Source: Tetragonia tetragonoides (lineage: Eukaryota > Streptophyta > Magnoliopsida > Caryophyllales > Aizoaceae). From it: a stretch of 64,000 nucleotides of DNA. Below are positions 7,969 to 34,362 of the stretch, in pieces. The stretch spans positions 29,763,501-29,827,500 of the forward strand of contig CM076152.1 of the NCBI GenBank assembly GCA_038025085.1, given 5' to 3'. Each line of letters starts with the position of its first letter. Position 1 is the stretch's first letter. The notes beneath the pieces were generated by a model. The model was not told the origin of the DNA, did no database searches, and saw only the letters and a program-made list of their open reading frames with translations. A program made the translations under genes and the position numbers.

Positions 7969-7970
7969 AG

Positions 7971-12634: not shown

Positions 12635-12661
12635 GGTGTAATCAGTACTCCTACACCTCCA

Positions 12662-12673
12662 ACTTGAGGGGGA
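12662..12673 (+). promoter_or_regulatory. Copia polypurine tract
   Basis: acttgagggggaga-type purine tract directly before the 3' LTR; the expected plus-strand priming site. Confidence 0.8.
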
Positions 12674-12806
12674 GAGTTAAATATCAGCAATTGTTAATAT
12701 GGTATGATGATGTAATAATGATGACCTGTCAAGGTTGTTACAAGTTTGTTAGGGTACTGTTTCATTGAGTTTGTTAGAGCTGGTTTGTATAGCCATATAT
12801 AAGTCA
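12674..12806 (+). repeat. 3' LTR of the copia element, first part
   Basis: Matches the left part of 7738-7968 and is cut at 12806 by insertion of the Tat gypsy element. The last five bases, AGTCA (12802-12806), are the TSD of that insertion. Confidence 0.9.
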
Positions 12807-13215
12807 TGTTGTGGGGTTTTCCTCGAACACTGGGAGTACTGAAAACTGGATTATCTGATATCTGCAAAAGATAGGACACGTCACTAGCCCGGAGAGGATT
12901 TTCGGGATCCCCGCTCCGATGCTTAAGTCAGTATTCTCTCTATTAGGTAATAAATGATTTTGATTGATTGAAAAAAAGTTGTCCTGTTCATACCTGAAAT
13001 GGCTGTATTTATAAGCGCGGATTTCACGGGTCCTGGAGCAGATTCCAGGCGACACGTGGCATCCGTGGATAGGGGGAGCTCATTTGGCTAGTCCCTGCTT
13101 GACACGTGTATTGACAGGGCCGCCTCTTGGATGGGTAGCTTTCAGAAGGCCCATCAGGATCCATGAAGATGGAGGATGATCCATTGGGCCTAGCTGAATA
13201 TTTTAGGTCATAACA
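12807..13215 (-). repeat. 3' LTR of the Tat element
   Basis: TGTTATGAC... to ...CCCACAACA on the minus strand. It matches 33950-34357. A TATAAATA box on the minus strand lies at 13016-13023. Confidence 0.95.
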
Positions 13216-13228
13216 TTTGCCCGTCAAA
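13216..13228 (-). promoter_or_regulatory. Polypurine tract of the Tat element
   Basis: On the minus strand, tgacgggcaaa lies directly before the 3' LTR, the expected place for plus-strand priming. Confidence 0.7.
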
Positions 13229-13323
13229 AACGGTTTTTTGGAACCGATAGGAGACAAGACGTTTCTGACAGTTAATGCACTCGAAAGAGGCGTTTCGTCT
13301 TCTTTGATCCTGGGGCGTTTCTT

Positions 13324-13330
13324 TATATAA
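13324..13330 (+). promoter_or_regulatory. TATA-like box of antisense unit A
   Basis: TATATAA on the plus strand, 94 bp upstream of the ATG at 13424 and outside the LTR. It could start transcription opposite to gag-pol; this is inferred from position only. Confidence 0.4.
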
Positions 13331-13423
13331 GCACTCATTCTTTTTGTCCGTACGTGACTCGTGTGATTAGATTCTGTTTTCCCTCGTGTTGTCATTTTTG
13401 TTCTCAATCCTTCGATTTTAGAC

Positions 13424-13987
13424 ATGGCTGATTCATCTGATGAGACACGGCAAGGTGGCTCTGGTAAGCGTCCTCGGCTTGCCCCTTCTTTTTGCTGATC
13501 AGATGGGCCGGCAACCCGGCGTTCAGTGAGATCGAGTGTGACTCTGGGTGCTCCCGTCAACTCAGTTTTGCCCCGGCAAATAGTCCTTGGGCTTCCTTCT
13601 TCTTCCAACCGTCTACATGCAGCAGGCGCCTCATCTTGCCGTCCCGCTTTGTCTTCTAAAGGCAAAGAGATCAAACCTGAGAGGAGCGTCTCGCCGCCTC
13701 CGGGCTTTGAAGGTCATCCACGTTATGGACGGGGACTTGACGGGACGATAAACCGTGCTGAATATGAGGAAGGGCTCAAGACCAGTCTTGGAAGCTTGGG
13801 GTCTCTTGCTTTGGACCTTCATGAGGCTGAGCGACGAGACGCAGCAGTCCAGGCTGAGTTAAACGTTGCAAAAATTCATGCTGCCGAGCTTAGGGGTCAG
13901 CAAGACCGTCTGTTTGATTTTTGTGGATTCCTGAGAGATGAGATTCGTAGGGATGCAAGAGCTGGTCACTCTGGCCGGCAGGGTTGA
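13424..13987 (+). pseudogene. Antisense unit A of the Tat element
   Basis: An open frame on the strand opposite to gag-pol, starting at ATG 13424, with one in-frame TGA at 13496-13498 and ending at 13985-13987 (187 codons). The N-terminal part is basic and low in complexity; the second half looks helical (EAERRDAAVQAELNVAKIHA). I recognise no domain. It is the first unit after the 3' LTR in the antisense direction. Extra antisense ORFs are known from Tat-lineage elements, so this is probably one of that class. Its single stop suggests a mild defect. Confidence 0.6.
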
Positions 13988-14435
13988 TTGTGGCCGGCGG
14001 GCTGGATTCTGAAGATAGCCGGCAGGTTTTATTGTGGCCAGCAAGTTTAGAATTTTTTTTTTTATTTTTTGCTTGCCGGTTCCTTCTCTTCGGCCATCGT
14101 GTAATGCCGGTCACTGTCTGGCCTTTTATAATGAATGAGAATGTCCTTTTTCCCCAGAAATCAATTCTGATTGCTTGCATCTTGATGTTATTTCTGTCTT
14201 TCCTGTATTCCTGTCCCCGAGGTGTTTCTTCTTGAATTTTGCCCTATGAAACTCGTGGTGGGCCAGGGTGCTTTGTTGTTGACTTGCTTTAATGGCCATG
14301 TGTTTCGGATCTGTCATTTTGACAAATGGCAAAATGTTGTTGGCTGTAGATGACGTCATCTTTTGTTCAGTACTTTGGTTGTCTTGGTATAGATGTGATA
14401 TCCCTCTCGATTATATCTGTTGGGTTTCTCCCACT
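13988..14435 (+). other. Spacer between antisense units A and B
   Basis: GC-poor non-coding DNA with a few GGCCGGC motifs. It may be 3' untranslated sequence of unit A plus 5' sequence of unit B. No convincing frame is seen. Confidence 0.4.
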
Positions 14436-15102
14436 ATGGTTTCAACTATTATGATTTCTTCTGGGACTAGCGATTCTGAAGGTGAGCCCGAAGTAATTAG
14501 CCATTATAGGCGGCGAAGATCGCCGAAGAGATTATGCTGGGAAATTCTTGCTTCAACGTCTAGAACTCCCTTGCGCGTTGTTCGGGAGGCTGGGATTCAT
14601 TATGGTGAAAATCTCGCCGGGAAAGTCTAGCCTCCTGGTATGCCCGACATTTGGCAGATTCTTCCCTCGGCAAACCGGTGAAGTTAGCGCTTGCGAGTTT
14701 GCTAGAAAAGGACATAATTGCTGGGAGGATTCCTTTCTCTTCGGCAACTCCTCTTAGCTGTCGCCGTTGCTCCCCTTCATCTGAGGGTTGGTCACAGGCG
14801 AAGTCGGATGTTGATAAGCGATTTAGCGATGCCGAGGGCTCTTCCTTGGCGAAATCAAAGGTTGTTCTCTCTCCGTGTGTTGATCGAGAGGGAAGGGTGA
14901 CTGATGTTGCAAGAATCAAGGCGGAGCTTGCTCGCATTCATTCTTGTTTACAAGAGACGTCTCTGAAGATTGCCGGTTTTGATAGTTGAGGTCAGCTCGC
15001 GCCTTGTATGAATGGCTGGGTTCCCGCCAAAGGGAGCTGGAAGTGGTATGTCAGCGCCTTCAAGGGGATTTGCTTAAGGTGGGGGAACCAGGCCTTGTGT
15101 AA
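14436..15102 (+). pseudogene. Antisense unit B of the Tat element
   Basis: Coding-like plus-strand sequence starting at ATG 14436 (a second ATG is at 14451). It opens with an acidic/basic stretch (SGTSDSEGEPEV, HYRRRRSPKR). The frame changes near 14610 and again near 14985, and it finishes at TAA 15100-15102. The third segment (LYEWLGSRQRELEVVCQRL) looks like coiled coil. No known domain is recognised. It might be an independent gene or an upstream exon group of unit C; the sequence does not decide this. Confidence 0.45.
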
Positions 15103-15176
15103 TCTTCTTAGGACTTGTATCTGTACTTTGTTCCCTTGTTTGGGCCAAGTGTACCCTTGGGGTTGAGTTATGCCCT

Positions 15177-15184
15177 GTTATAAA
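15177..15184 (+). promoter_or_regulatory. TATA-like box of antisense unit C
   Basis: ttataaat about 113 bp before the ATG at 15293, comparable in spacing to the boxes before units A and D. Positional evidence only. Confidence 0.35.
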
Positions 15185-15292
15185 TGTACCAATTCTGCAT
15201 TTTTGCATTCATTCGTTTTTTGCGTGCTCCTTTAATCATTGTGTTTATTGCTCTTCCTCTGACGTCTCTCTAGAAAATCCCATTTTTCTGAT

Positions 15293-18200
15293 ATGACTAT
15301 TGGAGGTGTTCCGTCATCGTCACAGGCCTCCGGCAAATCCTATCGAGAGGTTCTTTGGCAAGAGTCCATCAAGTTATCGAAGGCTGCCGATGAGATTGCT
15401 TATTGGGCGCCGGACTTGGCCTGGGTTCGCCGGACGACATTAAACGATGATCAGTTGAAGAACTTCAAAGCTCAGCTCGGCCTGCCTGAGCCCTGTACTA
15501 TTTCTTTTCCAAGTGAGGGCGATGTTGTCTTTTGCCCTCCTGATGGTGATTGCATTGCCGTGGATAACGGTATGATTGAGACGGGTTTTCGTCTCCCTAT
15601 GCTGCCTTTCGTCGTTGAACTTCTGGCAGATTATAAAGTTGCCTCGGCCCAGCTTCCGCCGAACATGTGGCTGGCAATAAATGGCTATCTTGCGATGTGT
15701 CGAGTCATGGGGTTCACTCTTTCGCTGAATGTTTTCAAGCATATCGTTATTTTGAAATCTGCCGGCTCATCGTCGCGTCCTTATTGCTATACCGCCGGCT
15801 ATGAACCCGGGTTTTTGCCCTTTCGCTATCCTTGCCCGAAGTATCACAACTGGAAGGATCGCTGGGTTTTTGTTGGCCGGCCGGGCGGCTGGAAAGATGT
15901 TCCTAACTTCGACGTTACGTATCATGCTGTGCCGGTAGGATCTCCCCCGGGACCTCTCTCGTTAAGTGAAGAGTTCTCTCTGAACAGTTTCAAATCTGTT
16001 TCTGTGGCGGACTCTGCCGGTAAGAATATACGCTGTCATGTTCGGTATTGCCCTCGCCTGGAGTGGTTCAAGGATGCCGGGTATTTGATCTTTGCCGACC
16101 TCCTCAAAATTCCTGATGAGCATATAGGTGTGCATTCTTGTGCTGTGAGATAGAAATGATATTTGTGCCGGAGCTTTCTTGTGTTTTACCCTTTGTTTGG
16201 TTGCAGGTAATATGATGAGGTTGCTTTCGAAGGCCCAACGGGGAGAGGAGATGGACTTAGGTGCTACTGCCCTGGAGAAGGTGAAGGATTTCTGGGCGGC
16301 ACTGGGAGTTGATCACATTCCTCTTGGCAACGAGGATCTGCCCATGCCCGCTTCTTTCACCGCTACCAAACCCCTGCTGGTGGATAAGCAGCCGAGTTCT
16401 CCTTCTGAAACCTTAGCGGCAGCTAAGCATCGCTCAGATATGAAGAAGGCTCAAGGGCGGGCTCGCCAGCCTATTGAGAAGGAACCATCTGAGACGAAAC
16501 TTTATGAGCTGTCGACGGCGTCGAGGCAAAAGGGTGGGTCTCTTAAAAAGAGGCCGAGGACGGTGACGTCCCTTGAGCTCCCTGTTTGTGTTACCCCGTC
16601 TCTTGTTTTCAACACTCCAGATGACGCTGAGAGTCGCGGGAATAATCCACGTCCTGCCGGGGATGAGGAGCCCTGGCGGGCGTCTTCGGAGGCAGAGGAG
16701 CCTCGACTGAACCTGGTGCCTAAAGGCATACCGGTGCTGGAGCAACAAGGAGATGGGGTCGTCCTTGCCGGGGAATTGATCTCTACGGATAGGGCTTGGA
16801 ATGAACCTCAGAGGAAAGTGATGAGCTCTATTGCGGAGCTATTGAAAAGTTCCGCAGACGGGAAGGCGATGGGCGGAGAGCACTCCACAGAGTTGATGAT
16901 GTCTGACTTAGTCTCTTCTATCGGAGTTGTAAGTTTTTGTCTGATTTTTGGTCACTGGCCCATGTTCTTGTTGATCTTTTTGTCAACTTGATTGGTTTCC
17001 ACAATTTGTGCAGCAATTTTTAGGCGCGGTTAGCACGCTTGAGAGGCTGCGCCCTGAACTTGCCGATCTACACTCCCTTCGCCGTCAGCGTGAGGGTGCT
17101 GTCAAAAAAATCAAGGATTTGTCGGCCAAGTTGCTGAAGAAAACCTTGGAGTCTGAGAAGCTTAGGGACGTGGCGGGCAAGTGGCATGCTGAGTTTAACC
17201 GCGTAAAAACCGAGCTTGATGAGCTGAAGGTGTAAGAACCCTCGCCTTTCGGCGCCTGATTGAAATAATAAATAATGTGTTATGAGTTCCTAAATAGAAG
17301 AGATTGATTGATTAAGGGATCATTGAACACATGAAGTCGCCACCAATTTTTAAGGAAATAATTGAAAACCATCGAAGTGCACCCAATTCCTATTGAGAAT
17401 TATGACTCATATAACCCAAAGGCCAAAGATTGAGTTCGGGGGTGTGGGTACGAAAAAGACAAAACGAATCTCATCTAAATCGCCCGTAATAACGGCCTCT
17501 ACTAATCCTATCCATGTTGATTATTAATTCACATAACAAGGTTCCAAACAATCCGGTCGTCCAAAACTAGGTGGGTTGAACAAACCAAATTATTAAAGTT
17601 TATCGCTTTGCACATGATTATCCAATTGCATGATTTGATTTATAGAACACAACCAAAATAGTAGAAATATGTTTCCAAACCTTACCGTGCTAGCTTAACG
17701 CACCAATTGCCAATTTGCATGAACAAATTTGTTAGTAACTTCAATGGAAGTAAAATAAAAGATATAAGCTTTAATTACATGATAGTATGCTAATTGAATT
17801 GACTAATCATGGAAAACATGAGAAGATATAATATTTACACTAGACATGATAAAATAAAAGAAAATTAGAAAATAAACTAAAAAGTATGAAAATCATGTAA
17901 GGATAATAATTAAACTAACCTATGCATGATAATCATGAAAACAATAATTAAAAACAGTCTACATATGATGAACTAAAAAAAACAATTAAAACATGCAAAG
18001 AGTATTAACCATGATCATAATATAAATAAAACATGCTTTGAAAATAGATTTAAGAGTTGAAAGATGAGCCCTCAAGTTGAACCTTGATTGTACTAGAATT
18101 GAATGTCAATTGCTTTTGATATTGGACTTGATCTTGGGATGAGAGTTGTTCTTGATTAGGGTTTGAAGATTGGTTTGATTGATGTGACTAGGGTTGAATG

Positions 18201-21200
18201 GAATAGAGGAGAGAGAGATATTGGAGTTTGATTGAGTTGAATCCCGTAATAATGAGTTGTCCCCCAAAAAATCGGAGTTTAGAGGGGTATTTATAGGTAG
18301 TGGGCCGAAAAGAAGGTCAAATTAGGATTTGCGGGCCAAAAACGGTGCCCAGCGGCCCCCCGGAGGGCCGCTCGAGGCTCGGCGGCCTCAATAGAGCAGC
18401 TGGGGCTCGGCGGCTGGGCCGCTGGGCCCGGCGGCCCGCTTCACAGCCTCCACTCCAACGAAAAGGACGCTGGAGGGCTCGTTTGACCTCCTATTGGCCT
18501 GATTCTTGGTTGCGTTGGATTCCATGTTCAAAGGGCTTTCTTTTGACATATTGTGGGCTCATTTAGCACAAGTATCCTATGACTTATGGCCCAAACACTA
18601 GAGAGGTGTCTGTTTCAATGGATTAATCAATCATCGGATCCTATCTTATTCGTTTCTAATGGGATTTTGGCCCATAATACATCATTAGAAAGCTAATTCA
18701 AAGGGGAATACAATCCTAGTGGGCTAATACTCCAATTTATCCTTGAATGGCTAAAAATCAGTCTTGAAACGTGATGTGCGGGTCTGAGAACATCGTTTTC
18801 AGCCCGTAACTTCATTAAATCATAACTTTCGACTCCGGTGTTCGTTTGGGACAAATGAGATGGCGTTGGAAAACTTATTGAAAGGGATATTATATGGTAT
18901 TGAAATTTAAAGGGTCCGGTATAAATATGGATAATGGGATACAAATAAGCACCAGTATTTCGAGCATTGACATTCAATTCATTATGTTCATTATTGGTCA
19001 TCATCATTGGGCATTTAAAAAGGAGGAACCAATTTAGGTGTTTACAGAAGCCCCCACTTTGGCCGAGTTCGAGTAGAGCGAAGGGCAAAGTATGCACAAT
19101 TTGAAAACATGCAATGCAAGCACATATTGAGATCGTCGATGAAGACATCGATGTTGGTGTCGATGGCTGTCAGGATTGCCAAGTTGACTTGAATTGAAGA
19201 CGGCAGTCGAGGTCGCCGGATTGACTTGAAATTGAATATGGCAGTCAAGATTGCCATATTGCCTTGAAATTGAATATGGCAGTCAGGATCGCCGGATTGA
19301 CTTGAAATTGAATATGGCAGTCGGGTTAGCCAAATTGACTTGAATAATTGAACATTGACTTGAATATTGACTTAAATATTGAAGATGGCTGTTGGGGTCG
19401 CCAAATTGACTTGAGGGGTTGACTTGAGTTAAGTATTCCTGTAAATGCAAATGCAAGGGCACACACAAACATGGCAATGCATACACACAAACATGGCAAT
19501 GCAAACACACAAATATAGGAGTGTAAACACATATTCGACCAATAGACACACATAGGAGATTGACTTGAATTTGAAATGAGAATCGAAGGCTCCAAACATA
19601 GAAAGCAGATTGAAAAATAGAAAATATTTTGAAAATCGATTTTAGAAAACACTTAGGGGTCCAAAGTAAAAACAATTTCCTTGATCGAATTTAATAGGAT
19701 GGTCTCCATGGAGCCTTCACCTTGGATGGGTGGTACTTCTTGAATGATCTACCATATCAGGATTTGGAGGAACACTTGCTGGATTGATGTCGAGCCTTGA
19801 GCGCAGAGTTTGATTATTTGAGTATTGAAAGACTTTGCACGAGCCTGAGAGTATAGACATGATGGATGATTGAAGGAAAGGTAAGGATCGAAAAAGATAA
19901 AACAATTTGAATTGTGGACTAGAATTGGAAGGGTTGATAAGGGAAGCACATTGATCGTGGAGGTGGTGGATAGAAAGACATGGGTTTAATACTCGAGTCC
20001 AAGTTATAGGCTCTAATGAATGATCCACAGAACACTTGAGGTGATTCATAGAAAACCAAGTTGATTAGAGATTATATGAGGGGAATTTTTGATGATTGAA
20101 TTTAGAATATGGCCGAGCCTCGAGAGAAGCTGCCTACGTATCCTTGCAGAATCAGGCCAGACGTAGTTCGTGGATTTTTATTTTTTATTATGCCCTTAGT
20201 TTTTGCCTGAATCATTGTCTTGGATGATCGATCCAGCGGGCTTGCCCTAACTTTTGCCTAGGTCATTGAATGAATGGGCCTAGCGGGCTTTTCACTTGAC
20301 TTTGGATGTCCTAACTTTTGCCTAGGCCGCCCCTGCGGGTTTTCAACCTAGCGGGCTGCACATGTTTTGAGTGTCAAAACCCTAAGAGGACTTTTGGGTT
20401 GTAATGCAAGGCTTGGGTTTGGGTTACCAAAGAAAGGGTTATTAAGGCTCAAAGTCCCATCAAAGCCCCCAGTGTGCCTATTGGTCACCTTATGTTTCGA
20501 GAAGTGGATTGAATTTGAATTTCATTTCTTTTTTTTGACTTTGACTTTCGTCTTTGCTTTTGCACTTTGAACATTTTTCTTTTTTTATTTTCTCTCTTTT
20601 TTCAAATCTTCTGACTCTTGGAATTCCACATCTCTCATGGATAGTGACGAAACGGATTGCACACTATCAAACCCCCCAGGTTAAGGATTATGTGGGTATG
20701 AAATGAATGGCTATGTGTTTGAGGCACAACTTGGTTGCAAGTGGAATTTTAATGTGGATTGAAAATGATTGATAAAGGGTGATAAATGAATGCCTCTTGT
20801 CCTCAACTTGACTTATGGACACATGCTTTCTTCTTATTTTTTTGTCCTTTGATTTGAATTGATCATCTTTTCCTTAGCATTAATGAATTATTGCAACTTG
20901 GATTCATCCTTGAATTTGAGTGTTCCATGGATAGAAGATATAGCACAATAGAGAAAAGTAATTGACTTTATTGAATAGAAAGGAAGAAACACACGGCTAA
21001 GACTTGATAACTCTTAAAGTAGACTTGAACTCGAATTGGGAAAGAAAGAACTGGGAGGGACTCTCCGACTCACGCTAATCTTATTGAACTCGAAAACAAA
21101 ACAAAATCCTAAGAGAAGACTAGTCTTGAAGGCGCTTGACATCTTGATGCTTCTCTTGACGCTTTTGGCTTGAACTTCAAAAATGGGTCTCTAGAGTGGA

Positions 21201-24200
21201 GACCTCTAGGCCTAGTGGTTATGGCCTAATGGATTACTGTTGTTATTGGGTTTCTTTATATCTGGGGCCGGGATGGTCCCAATATCTATGAGATCTTGGA
21301 TCTTATGCTTTAGAAACCAACAGTCATCAGTGTTATGACCTCGACCTCGATAGAACTTGCAAAAAGCTTCGGAATCCCACGATTTGCTTTGATTCTGTGG
21401 AGATGGATCTGGAGTTGGACCTGTAGAGTGAAGATGCCCAATTTGCTGGAGTTTCTAGAATGCTTTGCTTAACCTCACGCCCAATGGGGTGAATAACCTT
21501 CGAGGTTTGTTGGAATTATCTTCATTTAAAGAGTTAACCTCGAGACCTTTGAAACCATTACCCTTTTTGTCTTTAGAGTAGTTGGAGTAGTTGCTCTTAC
21601 TCTTTGTAGATTGAAGATGTTCCTCAATTTGGATCCCGACCTTGTAAAGTCTATCAAATGTCTCAATGGGTTGGAACATTAAAAGTTCTTGGTATTTGAG
21701 TTGAAGGTTGCGGACCACAATCCGTACTTGGTCCTCTTCGTAGGGGCGATTGATGACTTGGGCCGCCTTTTCTCTCCATCGAGTCAAGAAAGGAATAAAG
21801 TCTTCCTTTTCACTTTGCTTGGTCACTTCCAACTCCCTTAGAGTCATGGGGAGTTCATTGTTGTAGGAGTATTGCATCACAAATTCTTCTTTGATAGAAG
21901 TCCAAGATTTGGCCTTGAGCGGGCCTAAGGTTTTGAACCATTTAGAAGTTGGGCCTTCAAGTGTAATTGGAAAGATATTTGGATAAAGAGTTGAATCGAT
22001 CCCTTTGATCGCCATACATGTGGTAAAACTCCTTAAGTGACCATGTGGGTCTTCCACTCCCTTGAATTTGGGGATATCAAGTAATGTGACCTTCTTGGGC
22101 AGTTTGGAGTGGAGGTCGGCCTCGTGCTCCTCTTCTTCATCCATATAGTAGGTGTTATATGTAGAATTATTGCGCATGAGTTGCTCGAGCTTTTCAAGCC
22201 TTTTATCGAGCTTAGAGGGAAGAGGGATGTCATCCTTTTCTTCGTCATCAGTGTGAGGTTTAGACTTAACATCCTCCCGAAGTTTCTTGATTTTGATATC
22301 TTTGGCTTGGAGACGCGTATCCATCAATTTCAATTGCTCGTGAATGGCTTTGAGATCATCATCTCCTTACATGGTAGAGATTAGGCTTGAACTTAAAGTA
22401 TAATGTTCAGGTGGACTTGGAGGTGGTGATGGAAACAGTTTCCTGACGAGCCTACCGTTGGTACTCGAACGCTCCCACTTTGGGCTTAACTTTCCTATCC
22501 TGGATCAAAGGATGAATCAGAAAAGAAAAAAGGAAAAAAGAAGTTGAAAAGAAAAAGGAAAAGAAAGAGATTTATCCACAATTCTAGTCCCTTAATTTCT
22601 TTTTGATTTTTTATAAATGTTTTTTGAATATTTTCGAATTTCCGTTTTTTTACATTTTTTTATTTTTTTTATAAATTTTTTTAACGGGACATGGAAAAGT
22701 GGATAGGAAGAAATAAGGAAGGAGATTTTTGAAAAAACAAGAAAAGGTGAAAGATTTTGAAAACGGGAAAGAGATTTCGAAAATGGAAAGAAAAGAATTT
22801 GATAAAGAGATTTCAGAAATTAAAAAATTCTACTTCCTAAATGAGGACCCCTAAGATATGAGAGTTTTGAAATAAGGGGTAGAACACGATAAGGAATGTT
22901 CCAACTAGCATATAGCACATAGATCACGTCCAACCAAGTGAGAAAAGTGGAAAATTGAATCTAGAATAATCCCTCAACATGGTAACTTCTCAAGGAGATT
23001 TAAGTCGAAAATCCTCTAAGGTAATAAGTAATGTGCTTTAATTATTGATCCTCCATTTTTGACTTGATTAAGAAAAGAAAGACTCTTGACTCAAAAAGGA
23101 AAATATATATACTATTGACTTGACTATGGAAACGAGACTCTTTTATGAATAAGACTTGGGGAAGGGGAAAGATTCTTGACTTGTTATGGAAAAAAGAAAA
23201 TTACTCTTGACTTAAATGAGACTCGATTGAAAATATGGAAAAGACTCGAAAGAAGGAAAATATTACTCTTGACTGATTATGGAAAGTGAGACTTTTTTTT
23301 GGAAAGATCTTTAATCGAAACACCTTACTTACTAGGATTCTATTTTCTTGAAAAACAAATCTCCCTAATATGGTTAGTAGCATCATAGGAATCATTCATG
23401 GATTCTACTTCCTAAAAATAAAATATTCTAGACTCGATCTTAGAAAGATATCTACACAATAAGGGATACCAAATAACGCAAAAAGATTGCGCTAACACAA
23501 ATTGGCAAACAATCATGCAAGAATGGACATGTGAATGAATGCAATATTGGGTGAATCTATGGCTTTGGTAAGGGAACCCACGACCGAATGCGTTTCGTCA
23601 TCTATGGGATGCATAGTAAAACTAGACGTACCGTTTTATATATCTCGAATGGAAACATGTGAATGTCATGGGGTGGAACACGACTATGTGCAAAGGCAAT
23701 TCGGACCTAGTGGGTCACCGGCCTAAGTCATAGACAATGCTCCAAAGGGTAATTCCTATTATGGTGTGGTGATGTCTTTCGACATCTTGCGAAGATAACG
23801 CATGCAAATGGATGACATGAATGCAAAGCCATAATAATCACATAATGATCTTGAACCAAGAAATAATAATTAACAATCAACATGGGCAAGCTTTCGAATT
23901 ACACCCTCTTATTAAATCCCCAGTGATGTCGCCACTGTAAGAACCCTCGCCTTTCGGCACCTGATTGAAATAATAAATAATGTGTTATAAGTTCTTAAAT
24001 AGAAGAGATTGATTGATTAAGGGATTATTGAACACATGAAGTCGCCACCAATTTTTAAGGAAATAATTGGAAACCATCGAAGTGCACCCAATTCCTATTG
24101 GGAATTATGACTCATATAACCCAAAGGCCAAAGATTGAGTTCGGGGGTGTGGGTATGAAAAAGACAAAACGAATCTCATCTAAATTGCCCATAATAACGG

Positions 24201-26248
24201 CCTCTACTAATCCTATCCATGTTGATTATTAATTCACATAACAAGGTTCCAAACAATCGGGTCGTCCAAAACTAGGTGGGTTGAACAAACCAAATTATTA
24301 AAATTATCGCTTTGCACATCATTATCCAATTGCATGATTTGATTTATAGAACACAACTAAAATAGTAGAAATATGTTTCCAAACCTTACCGTGCTAGCTT
24401 AACGGGCCAATTGCCAATTTGCATGAACAAACTTGTTAGTAACTTCAATGGAAGTAAAATAAAAGATATAAGCTTTAATTACATGTTAGTATGCTAATTG
24501 AATTGACTAATCATGGAAAACATGCAAAGATATGATATTTACACTAGACATGATAAAATATAAGAAAACTAGAAAATAAACTAAAAAGTATGAAAATCAT
24601 GTAAGGATAATAATTAAACTAACTTATGCATGATAATCATGAAAACAATAATTAAAAACAATCTACATATTATGAACTAAAAAAAATAATTAAAACATGC
24701 AAAGAGTATTAACCATGATCATAATATAAATAAAACATGCTTTGAAAATAGATTTAAGAGTTGAAAGATGAGCCCTTAGGTTGAACCTTGATTGTACTAG
24801 AATTGAATGTCAACTGCTTTTGATATTGGACTTGATCTTGGGATGAGAGTTGTTCTTGATTAGGGTTTGAAGATTGGTTTGATTGATGTGACTAGGGTTG
24901 AATGGAATAGAGGAGAGAGAGAGAGATTGGAGTTTGATTGAGTTGAATCCCGTAATAATGAGTTGTCCCCCCAAAAATCGGAGTTTAGAGGGGTATTTAT
25001 AGGGAATGGGCCGAAAAGAAGGTCAAATTAGGGTTTTCGGGCCAAAAACGGTGCCCAGCAGCCCCCCGAAGGGCCGCTCGAGGCTCGGCGGCCTCGATAG
25101 AGCAGCTGGGGCTTCAGCGGCCAGCCACTGGGGCTCGGCGGGTGGGCCGCTGGGCCAGGCGGCCCGCTTCACAGCCTCTGCTCCCACGAAAAGGCAGCTG
25201 GAGGGCGCGTTTGACCTCCGATTGGCCTGATTCTTGGTGCGTTGGATTCCTTGTTCAAAGGGCTTTATTTTGACATATTGTGGGCTCATTTAGAACAACT
25301 ATCCTATGACTTATGGCCCAAACACTAGAGAGGTGTCTGTTTCAACGGATTAATCAATCATATCTTATTCGTTTCTAATGGGATTTTGGCCCATAATACA
25401 TCATTGGAAATCTAATTCAAAGGGGAATACAATCCTAGTGGGCTAATACTCTAATTAATCCTTGAATGGCTAAAAATCAGTCTTGAACCGTGATGTGCGG
25501 GTTGAGAACATCGTTTTCAGCCCGTAACTTCATTAAATCATAACTTTCGACTCCGGTGTCCGTTTGGGACAAATGAGATGGCGTTGGAAAACTTATTGAA
25601 AGGGATATTAGATGGTATTAAAATGTAAAGGGTCCGGTATAAATATGGATAATGGGATACAAATAAGCACCAGTATTTCGAGCATTGACATTCAATTCAT
25701 TATGTTCGTTATTGGTCATCATCATTGGGCATTTAAAAAGGGGGAACCGATTTAGGTGTTTACAGAAGGCCTCTAGGGAGAGCTTAAAGACAGAGGCTCT
25801 TGAGAAGACAACGGAGCTTGAAGTGTTGAAGGCTGAGCTGAAGGAGAAGGCCGAGCTGATTACCAGCAAGGACAAGATTGTTGCAGACATTCAGAACCAG
25901 GCCGAGAAGGCGCAGCTGGAGATCAACAAGTATAAGCAGGAAATTCAGAACGCAACTCGACAAGTTTCTTGGTACAATGTCTCTCTGTCTCGCGAAGAGA
26001 TCATTGCCGAGTTTAAGCGCTCTGACGAGTATGCTGCGCTGCTTGAGGGGGCTTTGAATCATGAGCGGCACATCGTTCACGAGCATGCACTGGCTGACAT
26101 CTACGGCGTGCTTTCTTCGGAGGCTGGTGGTCACATGTGCACATTGGTTAATGGAATTATGGCCGACCACTTCGCGCCGGATCTGTCTTGTAAGCCTATC
26201 TACGGGCGCGTTTCCAAATGTAACGCTGCGCCACGTGGCATTTTGTGA
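15293..26248 (+). CDS. Antisense unit C: Transposase_28-like protein, three exons, split by a nested element
   Basis: Exons 15293-16127, 16207-16928 and 17014-17230 continuing at 25770-26248. Both introns have GT...AG ends (79 and 85 bp). Phases fit, so the exons give 750 codons without a stop if the nested element and one TSD copy are ignored. Exon 1 (278 residues) has LPMLPFVVELLADYKVA, QLPPNMWLAINGYLAMCR and NWKDRWVFV. These resemble the plant 'putative gypsy-type transposon' domain (Transposase_28, from memory of the family). Exon 2 is charged and probably disordered. Exon 3 is long coiled coil (for example LEVLKAELKEKAELITSKDK). It is antisense to gag-pol. Function is unknown. The 8.5-kb insertion in exon 3 would end the protein early today. 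Confidence 0.75.
16128..16206 (+). other. Intron 1 of antisense unit C
   Basis: GTGTGC at the donor, a T-rich tract and TTGCAG at the acceptor, 79 bp. Splicing joins the phase-1 exon 1 to 'GTAATATGATG' and keeps the frame; reading through meets a TAG at 16151-16153. Confidence 0.7.
16929..17013 (+). other. Intron 2 of antisense unit C
   Basis: Consensus donor GTAAGT and acceptor TTTGTGCAG, 85 bp, T-rich, phase 0. Reading through meets a stop at 16989-16991. Confidence 0.7.
17231..19046 (-). repeat. 3' LTR of the gag-only element
   Basis: Begins TGTAAGAACCCTCGCC on the plus strand and ends GGTGTTTACA. It pairs with 23936-25764. It contains a GC-rich island of GGCGGCC motifs near 18340-18450 and AT-rich DNA elsewhere. 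Confidence 0.95.
19047..19062 (-). promoter_or_regulatory. Polypurine tract of the gag-only element
   Basis: On the minus strand, aaagtgggggcttc abuts the 3' LTR. Confidence 0.85.
19195..19400. repeat. ~38-bp tandem repeat
   Basis: Units run from 'atggcagtca' through 'gccggattgacttg' to 'aaattgaat', three to four copies with drift. The array lies close to the polypurine tract of the gag-only element. Tat-lineage elements often carry tandem repeats in this region. Confidence 0.7.
21212..22372 (-). pseudogene. Gag of the gag-only element
   Basis: A 387-codon minus-strand frame. ATG 22372-22370 is followed at once by TAA, and another in-frame TAG lies at 21457-21455. The middle has a Retrotrans_gag-like core (DIPKFKGVEDPHGHLRSF, WFKTLGPL, WTSIKEEFVMQY). 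The end has a zinc-knuckle-like CKFYRGRGHNTDDC, a form usual in Tat-lineage gag. An N-terminal KIKKLREDV-type segment may be coiled coil. Apart from the two stops the frame is whole. Gag would package RNA; no enzyme follows it. Confidence 0.85.
22373..23935. other. 5' untranslated region of the gag-only element
   Basis: AT-rich, non-coding. It includes A-rich stretches (22510-22850) and drifted repeats of 'gactcttgac' plus 'tatggaaa' at about 23080-23290. No enzyme domain is seen. Confidence 0.6.
23915..23935 (-). promoter_or_regulatory. Primer-binding site of the gag-only element
   Basis: The minus strand reads TGGCGACATCACTGGGGA directly after the 5' LTR. This resembles the TGGCGACTCC...TGGGGA site common in plant gypsy elements. 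I cannot confirm the tRNA. Confidence 0.75.
23936..25764 (-). repeat. 5' LTR of the gag-only element
   Basis: 1829 bp, closely matching 17231-19046 with small indels, including one in the GC-rich island (25040-25170). Confidence 0.95.
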
Positions 26249-26301
26249 ATGAGAACAGACCTTTTTGCCTAAAAAGTCCCCTTGATCGTGCCCCTTTCGC
26301 T

Positions 26302-26308
26302 TATAAAT
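26302..26308 (+). promoter_or_regulatory. TATA-like box of antisense unit D
   Basis: TATAAAT, 91 bp before the ATG at 26393. Confidence 0.4.
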
Positions 26309-26392
26309 TCCTCTTGAGTTTCCTTTTCATCGTTCATTCTTGTCTTTTAACTTCTTTAAAAACGTACTTTGTGAAATACGCTCTCCTGCAAC

Positions 26393-27844
26393 ATGACCTC
26401 TCCCCATCAAGGCAATCAGTCGGAATGGTTGAACTGTAGCGTACCGCAGGGTACCCCGGCTGCTGAGACAGCTTCTGCCGGGGAAAATCAGTCGGGTGCC
26501 AACGTTGCCGAGGACAACGTGTACTCGGCAGATGTGCTTGATGCCATTCGACGTTCTATAAAGGATCCTTCAAAAAAGGTTGCCCGCAAGCGGGCCCGTC
26601 TCCACAAAGGAATTGATCCAGGTGATGAGCCACGAGTTGTTACAAGTCGTTAGGGAAAGAATTTGTCACGCACCCCGTTAAAGAGGGCTGCCGGGGACGT
26701 GGCTCGCCATTTTGAGGTCAACGCTGAGGGAGACATGACAGCCCGAGAGTCAGATTTTGAAGATGATTTAGCGGCCCTTGCATCTAATAGCGCGGCTCAG
26801 GCTTATGAGGCCTGGGCCGCCGCCCGGAAATCCGGTGCTACCGCGGGTGCTAGTTCCAGCAATCCACCTACTCAGCCGGAGGGTTTTTCTTACATGAAGG
26901 CGATGGCCCGTGGGGAGACGGAACAACTGAATGATTTTCTTGAGCATATGATGGGGTATGGTTCCTGATGCCGACTTGGATTTCCTATGCAGCTTGCGGA
27001 TGAAGCAGATGAATGAGATTCATCGCGTTCTGGTGGAGCTGATGGTCCGTGTTGGAGGGTTCCAGCATTACTTCTATCCCATGATGCGCTGTGCAAAAGG
27101 ATACGCCAGGGAGTGTCGGAAGCTTCGTGAGGCTAATAAGCAGCTGAAGGCGTCATCGCAGTTGGCCAAGATGCAGGGGGTGCAGATCGTTCAAGAACGG
27201 GAGGGCCACGTTGCTAAGATGGCCGTCATGGAGCAAGAGTTCGAAGAAGAGAAGTCCAGGGGGAACCACTTGCACCAGGAGAACCTGGCCCTTCGCGCAG
27301 AGAACTCGGCCCTTCGTGAGAAGTTGGCGAGCTTGAAGGGCAGTTCCGCCGGTGGATCGGTTCGTTCGCAGCCGGTGGAAACTAACAAGGTGAGCAATCT
27401 GAGGGAGTCTGCTGTCGTTGCTGACCACGGATCCACCGAGCCTGCTGATCCTCAAGGGGAGATGATCCCGAGCTCGCCCCTTACCTAGATGACGGCCATG
27501 AGGCTTCTGATCATCTTGCCAAAGGTGAACGTGTTGTTGGTGACCATGATCTTGAAGATGATGATATTTTTAACTTTGAAGATCTTATGGATACCGATAA
27601 TCAAGCGGGCCAAACTGTCTTGGATCCTGGTGATTTTGGTGATGTTGTTTTGGGTCTCACCGATGGGGATCACCCCGAGGAAGCTCACGATGATTCTGGG
27701 GAGGAAGATTCTCCAATGCCGACTTCTAACGATGGCGACTCTGGGGCTGAAGGTTCGGGGAGCTCGGCTTCGGATGACTCTGATTCGTCGGGTGCCGGTT
27801 CTCAGTCGGGTGATGATTTTCTTGATGTCAGCGATATCCGCTGA
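26393..27844 (+). pseudogene. Antisense unit D of the Tat element
   Basis: Starts at ATG 26393 and ends at TGA 27842-27844. An in-frame TAG lies at 26651-26653, and frame changes occur near 26960 and 27480. The N-terminal part has a basic KKVARKRARLHKG patch. The middle is strong coiled coil (EEEKSRGNHLHQENLALRAE). The C-terminus is very acidic and serine-rich (GEEDSPMPTSNDGDSGAEGS). No enzyme signature is seen. The layout could suit a chromatin or scaffold protein, but that is a guess. It is the last antisense unit before the tail-to-tail meeting with integrase. Confidence 0.5.
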
Positions 27845-28309
27845 GAGGGTGGTGCTTCAGCTGTCACCAGTTTATTATAACATGCATATTTCTTGTATTT
27901 TTATGATTGTATCAACAATGCCCCAAAATTACATGAAATATAATTTGTTTTTTGCCTATCTGGACTGATGTATTAGCTGGCCTTTTGGTCAGAGTCCGTT
28001 TCTGATAGAATGTTTTTTAAGCCGATCTTAGTTGACGTTTGTCAAGGCTCGTATGTTTTTCTGCGAGTTGGACTGATTTTGGCTAACTGTTGTTAGAGTC
28101 CGTGTTTTACTCGCAGATTTAATAAATGAACTTCTTGCTGTTATTGAAGCAGTAAATAAAACTCATTCACAGACTGAAACCCATGTTCCCATTCATGTAA
28201 AGTTTGCACCGCAAAGGTGGTTACAAGCGAATATTGTGATTACACAGGTGATTATTTTGCCTAAATGAGCGTTGTTGCCTTTGTCTTTGCCAAGCGTGTC
28301 CGATGGCGC
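27845..28309. other. Convergent spacer between antisense unit D and integrase
   Basis: AT-rich non-coding DNA where the plus-strand cassette and minus-strand pol end toward each other. It would hold both 3' untranslated regions. Confidence 0.5.
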
Positions 28310-29618
28310 TTATACATGGTACTTCTTTAAGTTGACAGTGTTCCAGGGCCTCGGGAGCATTTCTCCATCGAGGGTGGATAGTCGATAGGTTCCTTGCCGC
28401 AGCTCTTCGACAATCAGGTATGGGCTTTCCCATGTTAGGGTCAGCTTGCCAGACTCAGACGCTTTCCCAATTGACTCAGTCTTTCTCAACACCATGTCAC
28501 CGACATACAGTGGTCGGGGGCGTACTGTATTGTTGTACTGCCTTGCCATTCTTAGGCGGTAAATCTCAGCTCGCAGCAGTGCGTCACCTCGTCTTTCTGG
28601 CAACAAATCCAGCTCTTCGCGGTGGTGTTCATTGTTAGCCATTTCTTCATACATCAAGATGCGGAGAGTTGGCTCTTTTGTTTCAATCGGCAACACAGCT
28701 TCGGCCCCGTATACCAGCATAAATGGTGTCTCCCCAGTTCCATTCTTTTCGGTTGTACGGAGGGACCGCAGAACATTTATGAGCTCGTCCGCCCACAGGC
28801 CCTTAGCCTTGTCCAACCTTCGCTTCAATCCCAGCAAAATTTGTTTGTTGGAGGACTCAGCCTGCCCGTTGGCTTGGGGGTTGGCCACTACCGTGAAGCT
28901 GCCTGTTATCCCCGTATTTCTTGAGCCAATCCTGAAGTTTTCGTGTCTCGAACTGTGCTGCATTGTCAAATGTGATGTTTCTGGAACACCCGAAGCGAGT
29001 TATGATGTTTCGCCAAATGAATTTCTTGACATCGGCCTCTGATATTGTTGACACTGCCTCGGCCTCGATCCACTTTGTGAAATAGTCGACGTCGACTATG
29101 ACGACTTTCCTCTGATATTTGGCCATGGTGAAGGGGCCAAGAATGTCCATGCCCCAGCGGGAAAAGGGTAAGGTAGTAGAGATGGGGTGAAGTTCAGTTG
29201 CTGGCTTTTGGGGCGTGTTGGCAAATCGCTGGCACTTGTCGCACTTTTGAGTGTATGAGATGGCATCCTGTCTCAAAGTGGGCCAGAAGTAACCCATTCT
29301 GAGAGTTTTGGATATTAGTGCCCGTCCGCCGATATGCGAGCTGCAGACGCCATCATGGAGCTCAACTAAGACTTGCTGGCCAGATGACGGGCTTATGCAT
29401 TTCAGGAGTGGATGAGTATATGACTGTTTATACAGCTGGCCTTCGAACATTGTGAACCATTTTACACTTCTTTCTACTTTCTCTGCCTCCTTTTTCTCTT
29501 CAGGTAGCGTGCCATCTGCTAGAAATTGGATGATAGGGTCCATCCAAGTGGGGCTTCTGTCTATGATCATGCTTTCTGTTTTATCGATGTCGCGCTCTGC
29601 TTTGATATCCCAGAACAC
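28310..29618 (-). pseudogene. Tat integrase
   Basis: Zinc-binding HHCC region (HDGVCSSHIGG to CDKCQRF), then the catalytic core with GMDILGPF, TFDNAAQFE (normally DNG) and NPQANGQAESSNKQ with the expected glutamate. The C-terminal part (GDMVLRKTE, LTLTWESPYLI) follows and the frame ends at 28310. One extra base in the C-run at 28910-28913 breaks the frame inside the core, and the DNG motif has lost its glycine. It is not functional as it stands. It shares the frame of the upstream pol until the break. Confidence 0.92.
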
Positions 29619-30017
29619 TGTTCGGGGATGGTCACTTTTCGCCGAGCTAGCCAGTTTTGATAAGGCGTCAGCCTGATTATTTTCTGACCTGGGAATTTGA
29701 CTGACTTAGAAAGTGATTAAGCGAGAGATGAGCTCCTTCGTTTTGCCGAGGTAGGCGTTCATGTTTTTGTCTCTGGCTTCATATGTCCCCAGTATCTGAC
29801 TAACTACCAGCTGAGAGTCAAAATAAGCCCTGATTTTGCATGCCCCGGCGGCTAGGCAGTATTCTATGCCTGCGATTAGCGCTTCATATTCTGCTTCATT
29901 GTTTGTGGCATTGAATTTGAACCGGAGGGGGTATTCGTAGTCCTCTCCCTCAGGCGAAGTGCAGATGAGTCCTGCTCCTGAGCCTTGTGTTGTTGATGAT
30001 CCATCGACATAAATGGT
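29619..30017 (-). pseudogene. Second ('archaeal-type') RNase H of the Tat element
   Basis: Minus-strand frame with TIYVDGSS, NNEAEYEAL, AYFDSQLV and NNQADALSK, the D-E-D-D acidic residues of RNase HI. It lies between the ordinary gypsy RNase H and integrase. A second RNase H at this place defines the Tat lineage. In-frame stops at 30018-30020 (before the domain) and 29706-29708 (near its end) break it. Confidence 0.9.
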
Positions 30018-31289
30018 TCATGGGCTGTCTGGATTGGGGGAGGGTGTAGGCTTCCTTCTGCTTTCAGTAAGAAAATCCGCGAGGGCTTGTCCTTTTATAG
30101 CCTTCCGAGGCTCGTACTCGATGCCTAGCCCTTGCAGGTGTATGGCCCATTTTAACATACGGCCAGCATTTTCGAATTTGCCGAGAATGTTTTTGAGCGG
30201 ATGGTCAGATAGGACGACCACCCTGTGAGATTCAAAGTATGGTTTTAACCGTTTACTTGCTGTAAAAAGAGCTAGCACCACCTTTTCTCTCAATTGGTAG
30301 CTGGCCTCCGCGCCGTTGTAGGCATGGCTGGTGTAGTATACGGGCCTTTAAATCTTATCTCTTTCGATAAAAAGTACCGCGCTGACAGCGGTGTCTGATG
30401 TGGCTAAGTAACAGAACAGCTCCTCGCCGGGGTTGGGGGCAACCATCGTGGGAAGTCTCGTGAGATATTGCTTTAACTCCTCAAATGCTTTAACTGCTTC
30501 TTCGGTCCAGCTGAACTTGGTATTTTTCCGGATGGTGTTGAAAAAGGGTGCACTTTTATCGGCGCCTCGGGCTATGAATCTTCCCAAGGCCGCGATGCAA
30601 CCAGCCAACTTTTGCACTTCTTTGACTGTTCGGGGCGGCATCATGTCGAGGATGGCGGCAACTTTGTCAGGGTTAGCGTCGATTCCTCTCTGGCTTATCA
30701 TGTAACCCAAGAATTTCCCGGCTTGGACTCCAAATGTGCACTTTTTTGGGTTCAGCTTCATGTCGTATAGCCGGAGATTCTCGAATGTTTGCTGTAGGTC
30801 TTTTACATGGCTTCCTCCCTTCTTTGTTTTTACTATCATATCGTTCACATATACCTCGACATTATCCCCAAGCTGATATTCAAAAAGCCGATTCACCAAT
30901 CTTTGGTATGTTGCCCCGGCATTTTTAAGTCCGAACGACATAACCTTGTAGCAGTACAATCCGTGTTCTGTGATGAACGCGATATTCTCTTGGTCAGCCT
31001 CATCAAGTTGGACCTGATGGTACCCTGAATAGGCGTCCATCAAGCTTAGTGTTTGGTGACCAACCGTGGAGTCAACCATTCTGTCTATGCGGGGTAAAGG
31101 GAAGCTGTCTTTTGGGCAGGCCTTGTTCAGATCGGTGAAGTCGACACACATCCGCCAGGACCCATTTGGTTTTTTCACTAGGACTACGTTGCTGATCCAG
31201 CCGGGGTATTGACATTCCCTGATGAATCCGGCTTACATGAGCTTCATTACTTCCTTTCTGACTGCCCTATTCCGTTCGTCACCCAGGTG
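30018..31289 (-). pseudogene. Tat reverse transcriptase and first RNase H
   Basis: RT shows NVVLVKKPNGSWRMCVDFTD, LNKACPKDSFPLPRID, LMDAYSGYHQ and FGLKNAGATYQ. The catalytic box reads YVND in place of YVDD (about 30838-30850), so the active site is mutated. The connection and RNase H follow (PVYYTSHAYNGAE, SDHPLKNIL, ADFL). In-frame stops are at 31233-31235 and 30348-30350, but the frame itself is continuous. It would have copied the element's RNA. Confidence 0.93.
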
Positions 31290-32126
31290 TCATTTCTTTT
31301 GCTTTACGGGGATGGCTGAGGGTAGGATGTTGAGGCTGTGCATAATAGTGTCGGAGCTGACCCCCGACATATCCTTTGCCGAAAATGCGAAAATGTCCTT
31401 GTAGGATCTAAGCACCGCGATCAGTTCGGCCCGGTCCTCGCCTATCAGTGAGCTTCCGATGTTGACAGTTTTATCGGGAAAGCCCTCGTCAAGGGGGATG
31501 TTCTCAGTTTCCTCAGCCGCCTTGGCTGACTCGTTGTTCTCTGACCATGGATCGATATCGTCGGCATTTGTTCGACTGATGCTCATAATCTCTATGACAT
31601 GCTTTTTACCCTTCCGCTCGGCTTCTAACTCGTCGCTCTTCAATATCGGCCTAACCATTGCAAAGTAACATTCTCGGACAACTTTTTGATCTCCATACAG
31701 GCTTCCCACAGAGTCGTCATCACATTCAAACTTCATCAGCAGCATATGTGTGGCGACGATTGCCCTTTTCTTATTTAGGGAGGTTCGCCCAAGGATTACG
31801 TTGTATGCCGATGCATCTTCGACGACGAGAAAGTCGATATAAGTGTTGCGACACTTGCCCGGTGGTCCAAAGCGGACGGGGAGTCTGCATGTTCCAATAG
31901 GATGGACAACCTTTTTACCAAAGATGACAATGGGTCGGGTAACCCTTTGCAACCTCTCCTCCTTGTAGTTCAATTGTCGTAAGCATTCGATTGATAATAA
32001 ATCTACCGAGCTTCCTCTATCAATCAACACTCTCTTCACACGGCGATCCTGGATTTTCAGTTATACGACCATGGGATCATCGTGTGGGGTGACGATACTC
32101 TTTGAGTCTCTTTCTGAAAATGTCAT
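31290..32126 (-). pseudogene. Tat protease and linker
   Basis: The frame from about MTFSERDSK (32126) runs through RVLIDRGSSVDLLS, the aspartic protease motif with DRG in place of D[ST]G. YNVILGRTSLNKKRA follows, then an acidic linker into RT. In-frame stops are at 32061-32063 and 31290-31292. The changed catalytic triplet and the stops mean no active protease. Confidence 0.9.
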
Positions 32127-32300
32127 CGACGGCATAGGTTTAGTCTGTCCCGGAGCGAGCAACATAACCTGACTGGCTTCTCGGACATACGCTTTGTTCC
32201 CGCTGACTGTGCGGTCGTCAAGTGGTAGACCGCCTGCGATTGTGGCGACAAATCACCTTCGTCGCTTTCCGTGCCATCGAGCTTGAGATTGGGAGGCTTT

Positions 32301-34357: not shown

Positions 34358-34362
34358 AGTCA

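What the first reader, a model, noticed from the sequence alone, without database searches (positions are those of the whole stretch)
13216..28309. Antisense multi-gene cassette inside a Tat retrotransposon, with one long intact spliced frame
Seen: on the strand opposite to gag-pol, four coding-like units (13424-13987, 14436-15102, 15293-26248, 26393-27844). Three have TATA-like boxes about 90-115 bp before the ATG. Unit C has two short GT-AG introns whose removal keeps phase and gives 750 open codons, while the sense pol frame has six in-frame stops and a frameshift. Known: Tat-lineage elements can carry extra antisense ORFs, and a Transposase_28 'putative gypsy-type' domain exists in plants. 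Inference: unit C may be under its own selection or use its own transcript, so the element could be a two-way transcription unit.
Basis: partly seen in the sequence, partly recalled or inferred. Interest (0 to 1): 0.85.

Follow-up and report, generated by a model that had tools for sequence, protein, structure and literature searches.

The report
Spliced antisense gene cassette in retrotransposon
A plant jumping element carries, on the strand opposite to its own copying genes, a set of four extra genes, one of them apparently split by introns, and comparison with sister copies indicates that natural selection has kept these extra proteins in shape although nobody knows yet what they do.

Summary
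Observation confirmed, with one proviso: in this copy unit C is broken by a nested 8.5-kb LTR element. The outer element (12807-34357, minus strand, TSD AGTCA, LTRs 3.2% diverged) has Ogre/Retand-type domain order. Between pol and the 3' LTR lie four plus-strand units A-D; C exon 1 carries Transposase_28 (PF04195, 47.3 bits). Antisense TRP28 ORFs are published for Retand, so the kind is known. Sister copies in the same genome are stronger. Among 20 hand-picked 10-kb copies C exon 1 is in 20, D 19, B 17, A 14, always opposite to integrase. Both C introns recur: intron 1 donor in 22 of 23 copies, intron 2 GTAAGT in 23 of 25, with GT-AG introns at matching places in copies only 25-40% identical. 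TATA-like boxes lie in narrow distance ranges before C (23/24), D (16/18) and A (12/14), not B (1/22). Median dN/dS is 0.14-0.29 in all four units (integrase 0.05-0.08; wrong forward frames 0.87-2.75). So it is a protein-coding, very probably spliced, antisense cassette. Transcription and function were not tested. No held paper that I found reports introns in these genes.

The parts
12807..13215 (-). 3' LTR of the outer (Retand-type) element
   Evidence: LTR pair 3.2% diverged (13 of 408 sites), TSD AGTCA on both sides; empty site visible in the other LTR of the host Copia element
33950..34357 (-). 5' LTR of the outer element
28313..33221 (-). gag-pol, decayed: gag, RT, RNase H, second RNase H (RVT_3/RNase_H), integrase; 8 in-frame stops and a frame change
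   Evidence: Pfam hits; stops
13424..13987 (+). antisense unit A (about 188 codons, one stop in this copy)
   Evidence: its 153-residue piece is open in 6 of 14 sister copies; dN/dS 0.29; TATA-like at -100, 12 of 14 copies
14436..15102 (+). antisense unit B (about 222 codons, frame-broken here); no TATA-like box
   Evidence: open in one frame in 6 of 15 sister copies; dN/dS 0.14 (N-terminal piece) and 0.24 (middle piece), TATA-like in 1 of 22
15178..15184 (+). TATA-like box of unit C
   Evidence: -115/-114; -123 to -107 in 23 of 24 copies
15293..16127 (+). unit C exon 1, with Transposase_28 (PF04195) at residues 94-154
   Evidence: 47.3 bits, E 2.5e-12; dN/dS 0.14
16128..16206 (+). unit C intron 1 (79 bp, GTGTGC...TTGCAG)
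   Evidence: conserved position
16207..16928 (+). unit C exon 2 (basic KKRPR stretch)
   Evidence: dN/dS 0.27
16929..17013 (+). unit C intron 2 (85 bp, GTAAGT...GTGCAG)
   Evidence: GTAAGT in 23 of 25 copies
17014..17230 (+). unit C exon 3, first part
   Evidence: dN/dS 0.22
17231..25764 (.). nested LTR element that splits exon 3 (TSD GAAGG 17226-17230 / 25765-25769; LTRs 17231-19046 and 23936-25764, 3.6% diverged)
   Evidence: the two halves adjoin in the 17 of 20 sister copies in which both were found
25765..26248 (+). unit C exon 3, second part, to the stop; coiled-coil-like. Starts with the second copy of the TSD
   Evidence: dN/dS 0.21
26393..27844 (+). antisense unit D (about 480 codons; basic N-terminus, leucine-zipper-like middle, acidic tail; broken here)
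   Evidence: one frame throughout in 4 of 16 sister copies but with 1-3 stops, fully open in 0 of 16; dN/dS 0.19 (N-terminal piece) and 0.16 (middle piece); TATA-like in 16 of 18 copies

Best explanation
The region is the antisense accessory-gene cassette of a Retand-type (Tat) Ty3/gypsy retrotransposon: four protein-coding genes A-B-C-D between pol and the 3' LTR, read opposite to gag-pol. Shown: order, orientation, the exon-intron layout of C, TATA-like boxes and protein-level constraint are conserved among sister copies. C is a two-intron gene for a roughly 750-residue protein with an N-terminal Transposase_28 domain and a coiled-coil-like tail; A and B are single open frames in some copies; D needs no intron but no fully open copy of it was seen. 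Inferred: A, C and D are transcribed from their own internal promoters and C is spliced. Because the genomic RNA used for reverse transcription is the opposite strand, C's introns appear there reverse-complemented, are not recognised by the spliceosome, and so survive each round; a sense-strand intron would tend to be lost. Inferred, less sure: the products, some with basic NLS-like stretches, are nuclear regulators that act on the element's own DNA or chromatin (promoter control or escape from silencing), as suggested for Grande GENE23 and TRP28 proteins. In this copy the cassette is dead: C is split by a nested element and A, B and D carry stops or frame changes.
For: PF04195 in C exon 1, and in 17 of 17 aligned sequences, window included. 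Of 150 PF04195 matches scored in the genome (252 candidates) I examined 34 loci. In 20 hand-picked 10-kb loci: C exon 1 in 20 (one of them, L027, distant and partial), C2 19, C3 18, D 19, B 17, A 14, none on the other strand; integrase opposite to C in 20 of 20; order A-B-C-D-INT in 14 of 14 with all four. Intron 1: AG|GT donor 22 of 23, YAG 22 of 23; intron 2: GTAAGT 23 of 25, YAG|CA 20 of 25 (28 loci searched). GT-AG intron 1 in 6 of 6 distant copies, intron 2 in 3 of 3 of the nearer distant group. Introns are T-rich (0.47, 0.45) and less conserved (0.63, 0.61) than exons (0.69-0.76); no precise loss of intron 1 in 28 loci, 23 of them informative. Median dN/dS: C1 0.14, C2 0.27, C3a 0.22, C3b 0.21, DN 0.19, DM 0.16, A 0.29, BN 0.14, BM 0.24; integrase 0.05-0.08; wrong forward frames 0.87-2.75. 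TATA-like: C 23/24, D 16/18, A 12/14, against 6.6% of random windows.
Against: No RNA evidence at all: splicing and promoter use are inferred from conservation. B has a TATA-like box in only 1 of 22 copies, so its expression is unexplained. D is fully open in 0 of 16 copies, A in 6 of 14, B in 6 of 15, and I did not count copies with the whole of C open (single pieces without stop: C1 14 of 21, C2 9 of 19, C3a 16 of 22, C3b 6 of 14). Unit A's dN/dS rests on 8 copies and reaches 1.85 for a single pair. One reverse-strand frame also gives low values (0.22-0.38) because its third positions coincide with those of the forward frame; the forward frame is lower in each piece so tested, B not among them. 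The 20 loci were chosen partly for long open frames, which favours intact copies. An earlier survey found Transposase_28 in only 23% of Retand elements, called the extra ORFs highly divergent and questioned whether they have a function (PMC6317226 passages). For function there is only one domain of unknown role and basic stretches; profile searches of solved structures gave nothing significant and the single-sequence fold was worthless (pLDDT 34).
Confidence: 0.85

Rival explanations
1. The antisense frames are by-products; the selected product is a cassette-strand RNA (for example a dsRNA or siRNA source that limits the element), not proteins.
For: Antisense RNAs that act as RNA are known in other retroelements and are discussed as an alternative for these genes (PMC7264820). 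No fully open copy of D was seen (0 of 16).
Against: Third codon positions carry 47-57% of substitutions in C and D pieces, and median dN/dS is 0.14-0.29 in the coding frames. Introns are less conserved than exons.
Confidence: 0.06
2. Units A-D are a host gene cluster, or genes captured once by this copy, unrelated to the element's life cycle.
For: Multi-exon structure is unusual for LTR elements, which generally lack introns (PMC12786077 passage).
Against: 142 exon-1 matching stretches in the genome, some copies giving two, and integrase on the opposite strand in 20 of 20 loci examined; TRP28 is reported in 97% of recent Retand clusters.
Confidence: 0.03
3. The proteins are real, but their job is in the integration step (nuclear import of the pre-integration complex or target choice), not transcription or silencing.
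For: NLS-like basic stretches in A, C and D; nuclear localisation of Grande GENE23 and a possible role with the pre-integration complex are discussed in PMC7264820.
Against: Nothing here tests it; separate internal promoters on the opposite strand fit a regulatory protein made apart from virus-like particles at least as well.
Confidence: 0.3

Closest known systems
Retand-lineage antisense TRP28 ORFs (Vicient 2025, PMC11963269; read parts 1-3 of 5, title to conclusions, plus passages)
   Same: Antisense ORFs between pol and 3' LTR reported in all cases; 97% of clusters with TRP28; POL-3'LTR 2,933-6,566 bp (here 6,555 without the nested element); LTR and internal sizes in range
   Different: There ORFs were found with ORF Finder; the parts I read describe no introns or promoters. 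Here the TRP28 part and the coiled-coil part are exons of one gene, and four units, two introns and TATA-like boxes are shown to be conserved within one genome
Grande gene23 of Zea (Gomez-Orte 2013; not read, seen only as described in PMC7264820, parts 1-2 of 3)
   Same: Antisense accessory gene in a long 3' region with its own promoter; nuclear protein
   Different: Described there as one gene; whether it has introns or TRP28 was not seen by me
PvRetro13 (antisense ORF with SMC domain; PMC7264820) and Silene Retand ORF3/ORF4 (PMC7264820; PMC11728184 passages)
   Same: Antisense ORFs with SMC or Transposase_28 annotation
   Different: Described as separate ORFs; the present gene model suggests, untested for those elements, that such pieces can be exons of one spliced gene
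Ogre sense-strand intron between gag-pro and pol (PMC6317226 passage)
   Same: Intron in a Tat element
   Different: Ogre's intron is on the sense strand and spliced in only a subset of transcripts; here the introns are on the antisense strand and so shielded from loss
Anti-silencing proteins of Vandal DNA transposons (PMC11728184 passage; the name VANC is recalled); HBZ of HTLV-1 (PMC11963269)
   Same: Accessory proteins that regulate the element or virus; HBZ is also antisense
   Different: No sequence relation tested; analogy only

Membership tests
Retand (Tat, Ty3/gypsy) | Second RNase H (aRH) between RH and integrase (Ogre and Retand; PMC6317226) | tested here: met
   RT, RT_RNaseH, then RVT_3/RNase_H, then integrase; this does not separate Retand from Ogre
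Retand (Tat, Ty3/gypsy) | Antisense ORF with Transposase_28 between pol and 3' LTR (97% of clusters in PMC11963269; 23% of elements in PMC6317226) | tested here: met
   PF04195 47.3 bits, cut-off 26.2; integrase on the opposite strand
Retand (Tat, Ty3/gypsy) | LTR 315-1,194 bp, internal region 7,380-12,869 bp, POL-3'LTR 2,933-6,566 bp (PMC11963269) | tested here: met
   409/408 bp LTRs; element 13,012 bp without the nested insert, so about 12,195 bp internal; POL-3'LTR 6,555 bp
Retand (Tat, Ty3/gypsy) | Reverse transcriptase clusters with Retand references | not tested
   No reference set of lineages was used
Retand (Tat, Ty3/gypsy) | Primer binding site type of the lineage | tested here: inconclusive
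   TGG lies 2 bp inside the 5' LTR (sequence printed); the tRNA was not identified
Transposase_28 proteins (PF04195) | Score over the Pfam gathering cut-off | tested here: met
   17 of 17 aligned sequences match at E up to 0.01
Transposase_28 proteins (PF04195) | Conserved positions G21, P25, L34, P46, N47, F55 (PMC11963269) | tested here: met
   5 of 6 identical at the same spacing, starting at G98; Y in place of F
Transposase_28 proteins (PF04195) | Transposase activity implied by the name | not testable with these tools
   No activity is described in the papers seen; name only

The most novel reading that the evidence does not exclude
The TRP28 accessory gene of Retand retrotransposons is an ancient multi-exon gene, carried for the long term inside a retroelement because it sits on the antisense strand, where introns escape removal during retrotransposition; the separate TRP28 and SMC-like antisense ORFs in the literature would often be exons of one spliced gene. 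The element would thus run two programmes: a sense one for copying and an antisense one, from up to three internal promoters, for nuclear regulators.
Probability: 0.6. Interest if true: 0.75.

Novelty: new variant of a known kind. Interest (0 to 1): 0.6.

Why it matters
Reverse transcription of spliced RNA strips introns, so a long-conserved intron-bearing gene inside a retroelement is unexpected and gives a concrete reason for its antisense orientation, which the papers seen leave open. It also suggests that surveys based on uninterrupted ORFs will have cut such genes into pieces, and it supplies exact junctions and promoter positions with which expression and function can be tested in existing RNA data.

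Tried and rejected
Rejected: that C's intactness in this copy proves selection (expected stops 1.0-1.75; P of none 0.17-0.36; post hoc 0.02-0.03). Not needed: introns in A or B, which are open in one frame in 6 of 14 and 6 of 15 copies, or in D, which keeps one frame in 4 of 16 copies though with 1-3 stops. No clear relation among A, B, C and D: best match between units E 0.016 on 18 residues.

Led nowhere: protein searches with exon 1 and with the spliced first three exon pieces (no relative among 500 and 8000 candidates); viral and bacterial collections; single-sequence fold (pLDDT 34); solved-structure searches (nothing below E 0.32, Polycomb Sfmbt E 0.029, not significant, none up to 0.1). 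Ten literature searches showed no paper on introns in Retand antisense genes; Gomez-Orte 2013, Kejnovsky 2006 and Steinbauerova 2011 were not read, so splicing may be reported there.
Full report
What is there. The window (contig C14 of a 752.8-Mb genome; plant by its elements) holds a three-level nest. A Copia element (RVT_2) has its right LTR split by the outer element, 12807-34357 on the minus strand, with 5-bp TSD AGTCA; the other Copia LTR shows the empty site. The outer element has LTRs of 409 and 408 bp that differ at 13 of 408 sites, and gag, RT, RNase H, a second RNase H and integrase in that order. Into it is inserted another LTR element, 17231-25764, TSD GAAGG, LTRs differing at 64 of 1805 sites. 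The nested element must be younger although its LTRs are nominally more diverged; the two values are close.

The antisense units. Between the end of pol (about 28310) and the 3' LTR, 6,555 bp without the nested element, lie four plus-strand units. C exon 1 has Transposase_28 over the Pfam cut-off and 5 of 6 positions that Vicient reports as conserved, at the same spacing. Basic stretches KRPR, KKRPR and KRAR occur in A, C exon 2 and D; the D tail is 31% acidic. Weak sub-cut-off hits of C exon 3 and D to coiled-coil families suggest coiled coils, no more.

Is it chance? The open frames of C exons 1, 2 and 3b exceed all of 500 shuffles each; exon 3a does not stand out, and the broken D only weakly. 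In this copy alone the absence of stops in C says little: given LTR divergence, 1.0-1.75 stops were expected. gag-pol has 8 stops where 2.4-4.1 were expected, an excess of doubtful weight (P 0.004-0.06).

Sister copies. PF04195 gave 150 scored matches out of 252 candidates; exon 1 as query gave 142 matching stretches, some copies giving two (139 of 382 candidates scored), roughly in two groups, about 50-87% and about 33-46% identical. I examined 34 loci: 8 cut by the tool (L001-L008), 20 of 10 kb chosen by hand from the list, mostly for similar profile range and long open frames (L009-L028), and 6 distant ones of 4.6 kb (L029-L034). In the 20 large loci C exon 1 is present in 20, C2 in 19, C3 in 18, D in 19, B in 17, A in 14; L027 is a distant copy with a partial C1 only. 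Integrase is on the opposite strand in 20 of 20; all four units in the same order in 14 of 14 that have all four. In the 17 loci where both halves of C exon 3 were found they adjoin within 49 bp, so the nested insertion is particular to this copy among those examined. Many copies are decayed: A's piece is open in 6 of 14, B in 6 of 15, D in 0 of 16, though 4 of those 16 keep one frame with 1-3 stops.

Introns. Exon 1 alignments end at residues 275-278 in 30 of 34 loci. Where both flanks could be placed (28 loci searched), intron 1 has an AG|GT donor in 22 of 23 and a YAG near the acceptor place in 22 of 23; intron 2 has GTAAGT in 23 of 25 and YAG|CA in 20 of 25. Of the five acceptor misses, L009 and L023 read AG|TA, L024 was cut short by my pattern, and L017 and L025 have lost the AG; L008 has lost it in intron 1. 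The window's own intron 1 donor, GTGTGC, departs from the GTATGN usual in the others. In the distant groups a GT-AG intron sits at the same place in 6 of 6 copies (for L032, whose alignment stops earlier, by likeness to L033) and a second in 3 of 3 of the nearer group; the farther group shows at least one further intron, in two copies apparently GC-AG, seen by eye only. Introns are T-rich and less conserved than exons. None of 28 loci, 23 informative, lacks intron 1 precisely.

Selection. Median pairwise dN/dS (Nei-Gojobori, pieces covering at least 80% of the query, one per copy, stops skipped, saturated pairs and pairs with dS up to 0.02 dropped; 28 loci searched): C1 0.14 (21 copies), C2 0.27 (19), C3a 0.22 (22), C3b 0.21 (14), DN 0.19 (16), DM 0.16 (9), A 0.29 (8, single pair up to 1.85), INT1 0.05 (10), INT2 0.08 (13); BN 0.14 (21), BM 0.24 (16). 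Control: the two wrong forward frames give 0.87-1.64 in cassette pieces and 1.16-2.75 in integrase; two reverse frames give 0.96-2.01 (cassette) and 1.16-3.10 (integrase); the third reverse frame, whose wobble positions coincide, gives 0.22-0.38 (cassette) and 0.12-0.19 (integrase), higher than the forward frame in each piece tested. B was not in this control. The cassette is thus constrained as protein, about two to five times less tightly than integrase.

Promoters. TATA-like words lie at -107 to -123 before C in 23 of 24 copies, -85 to -125 before D in 16 of 18 (13 at -115 to -125, 3 at -85 to -90), -96 to -107 before A in 12 of 14, but before B in 1 of 22; random 71-bp windows have one in 6.6%. 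A's starts were placed by a short, weak match. B may be read through from A or use another kind of promoter.

Mechanism. Position, orientation, exon layout and constraint are shown; transcription from the TATA boxes and splicing are inferred; nuclear regulation is a guess supported by basic stretches and by the nuclear localisation and own-promoter transcription of Grande GENE23 (as reported in PMC7264820). The antisense place has a simple consequence, from established knowledge: the RNA that is reverse-transcribed carries the introns in reverse complement, where they cannot be spliced, so they persist. A review states that plant LTR elements generally lack introns, with Ogre and EVADE as exceptions (PMC12786077 passage).

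What is known. Antisense ORFs with TRP28 are a published trait of Retand elements (PMC11963269, parts 1-3 of 5; passages); an antisense promoter is published for Grande. An earlier survey found Transposase_28 in 23% of Retand elements and questioned whether extra ORFs have a function (PMC6317226 passages). In PMC11963269 ORFs were called with ORF Finder; 'splic' occurs twice in the text, in a reference title, and 'intron' not at all. Ten literature searches gave no report of introns in these genes, but key older papers were not read. Hence: new variant of a known kind, not a new kind.

Noticed in passing
7738-12812 and 34358-34457: Copia element (RVT_2 and gag_pre-integrs over cut-off, rve just under) whose right LTR is split by the outer element; its other LTR shows the empty site
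   Followed up: yes
17231-25764: Nested LTR element with about 1.82-kb LTRs; its one frame tested (21455-22333) has a gag hit; the rest was not searched
   Followed up: partly
39905-42276 (minus strand): Host gene in pieces: pyridoxal-dependent decarboxylase (PF00282 in three ORFs covering profile positions 1-374), probably an aromatic amino acid decarboxylase gene (recalled likeness)
   Followed up: partly
45853-45925: tRNA-like sequence (RF00005, 42.8 bits) shortly after the left LTR of another LTR element (44120-51666); ARAGORN with the bacterial code does not call it
   Followed up: no
526-1770 and 1809-3057: Tandem duplication of about 1.25 kb, 99% identical, so probably recent
   Followed up: no
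28313-33221: gag-pol has 8 in-frame stops where LTR divergence predicts 2.4-4.1; the copy may have been partly dead already when it inserted
   Followed up: partly
L032 and L033, about 1330-1420 on the cassette strand: Distant TRP28 genes seem to have a further small intron with GC-AG ends; L034 has GT-AG there (by eye)
   Followed up: no
14436 (unit B start): B alone lacks a TATA-like box (1 of 22 copies) although its dN/dS is as low as that of the others
   Followed up: partly
26393-27844 (unit D): D is fully open in none of 16 copies although its dN/dS is low; the stop after codon 86 in the window has a counterpart at the same place in L020
   Followed up: partly
28310 to the 3' LTR of the outer element: Tandem Repeats Finder shows no array of three or more units in the outer element's own part of the pol-3'LTR stretch, whereas about half of recent Retand elements have arrays there (PMC11963269)
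   Followed up: yes
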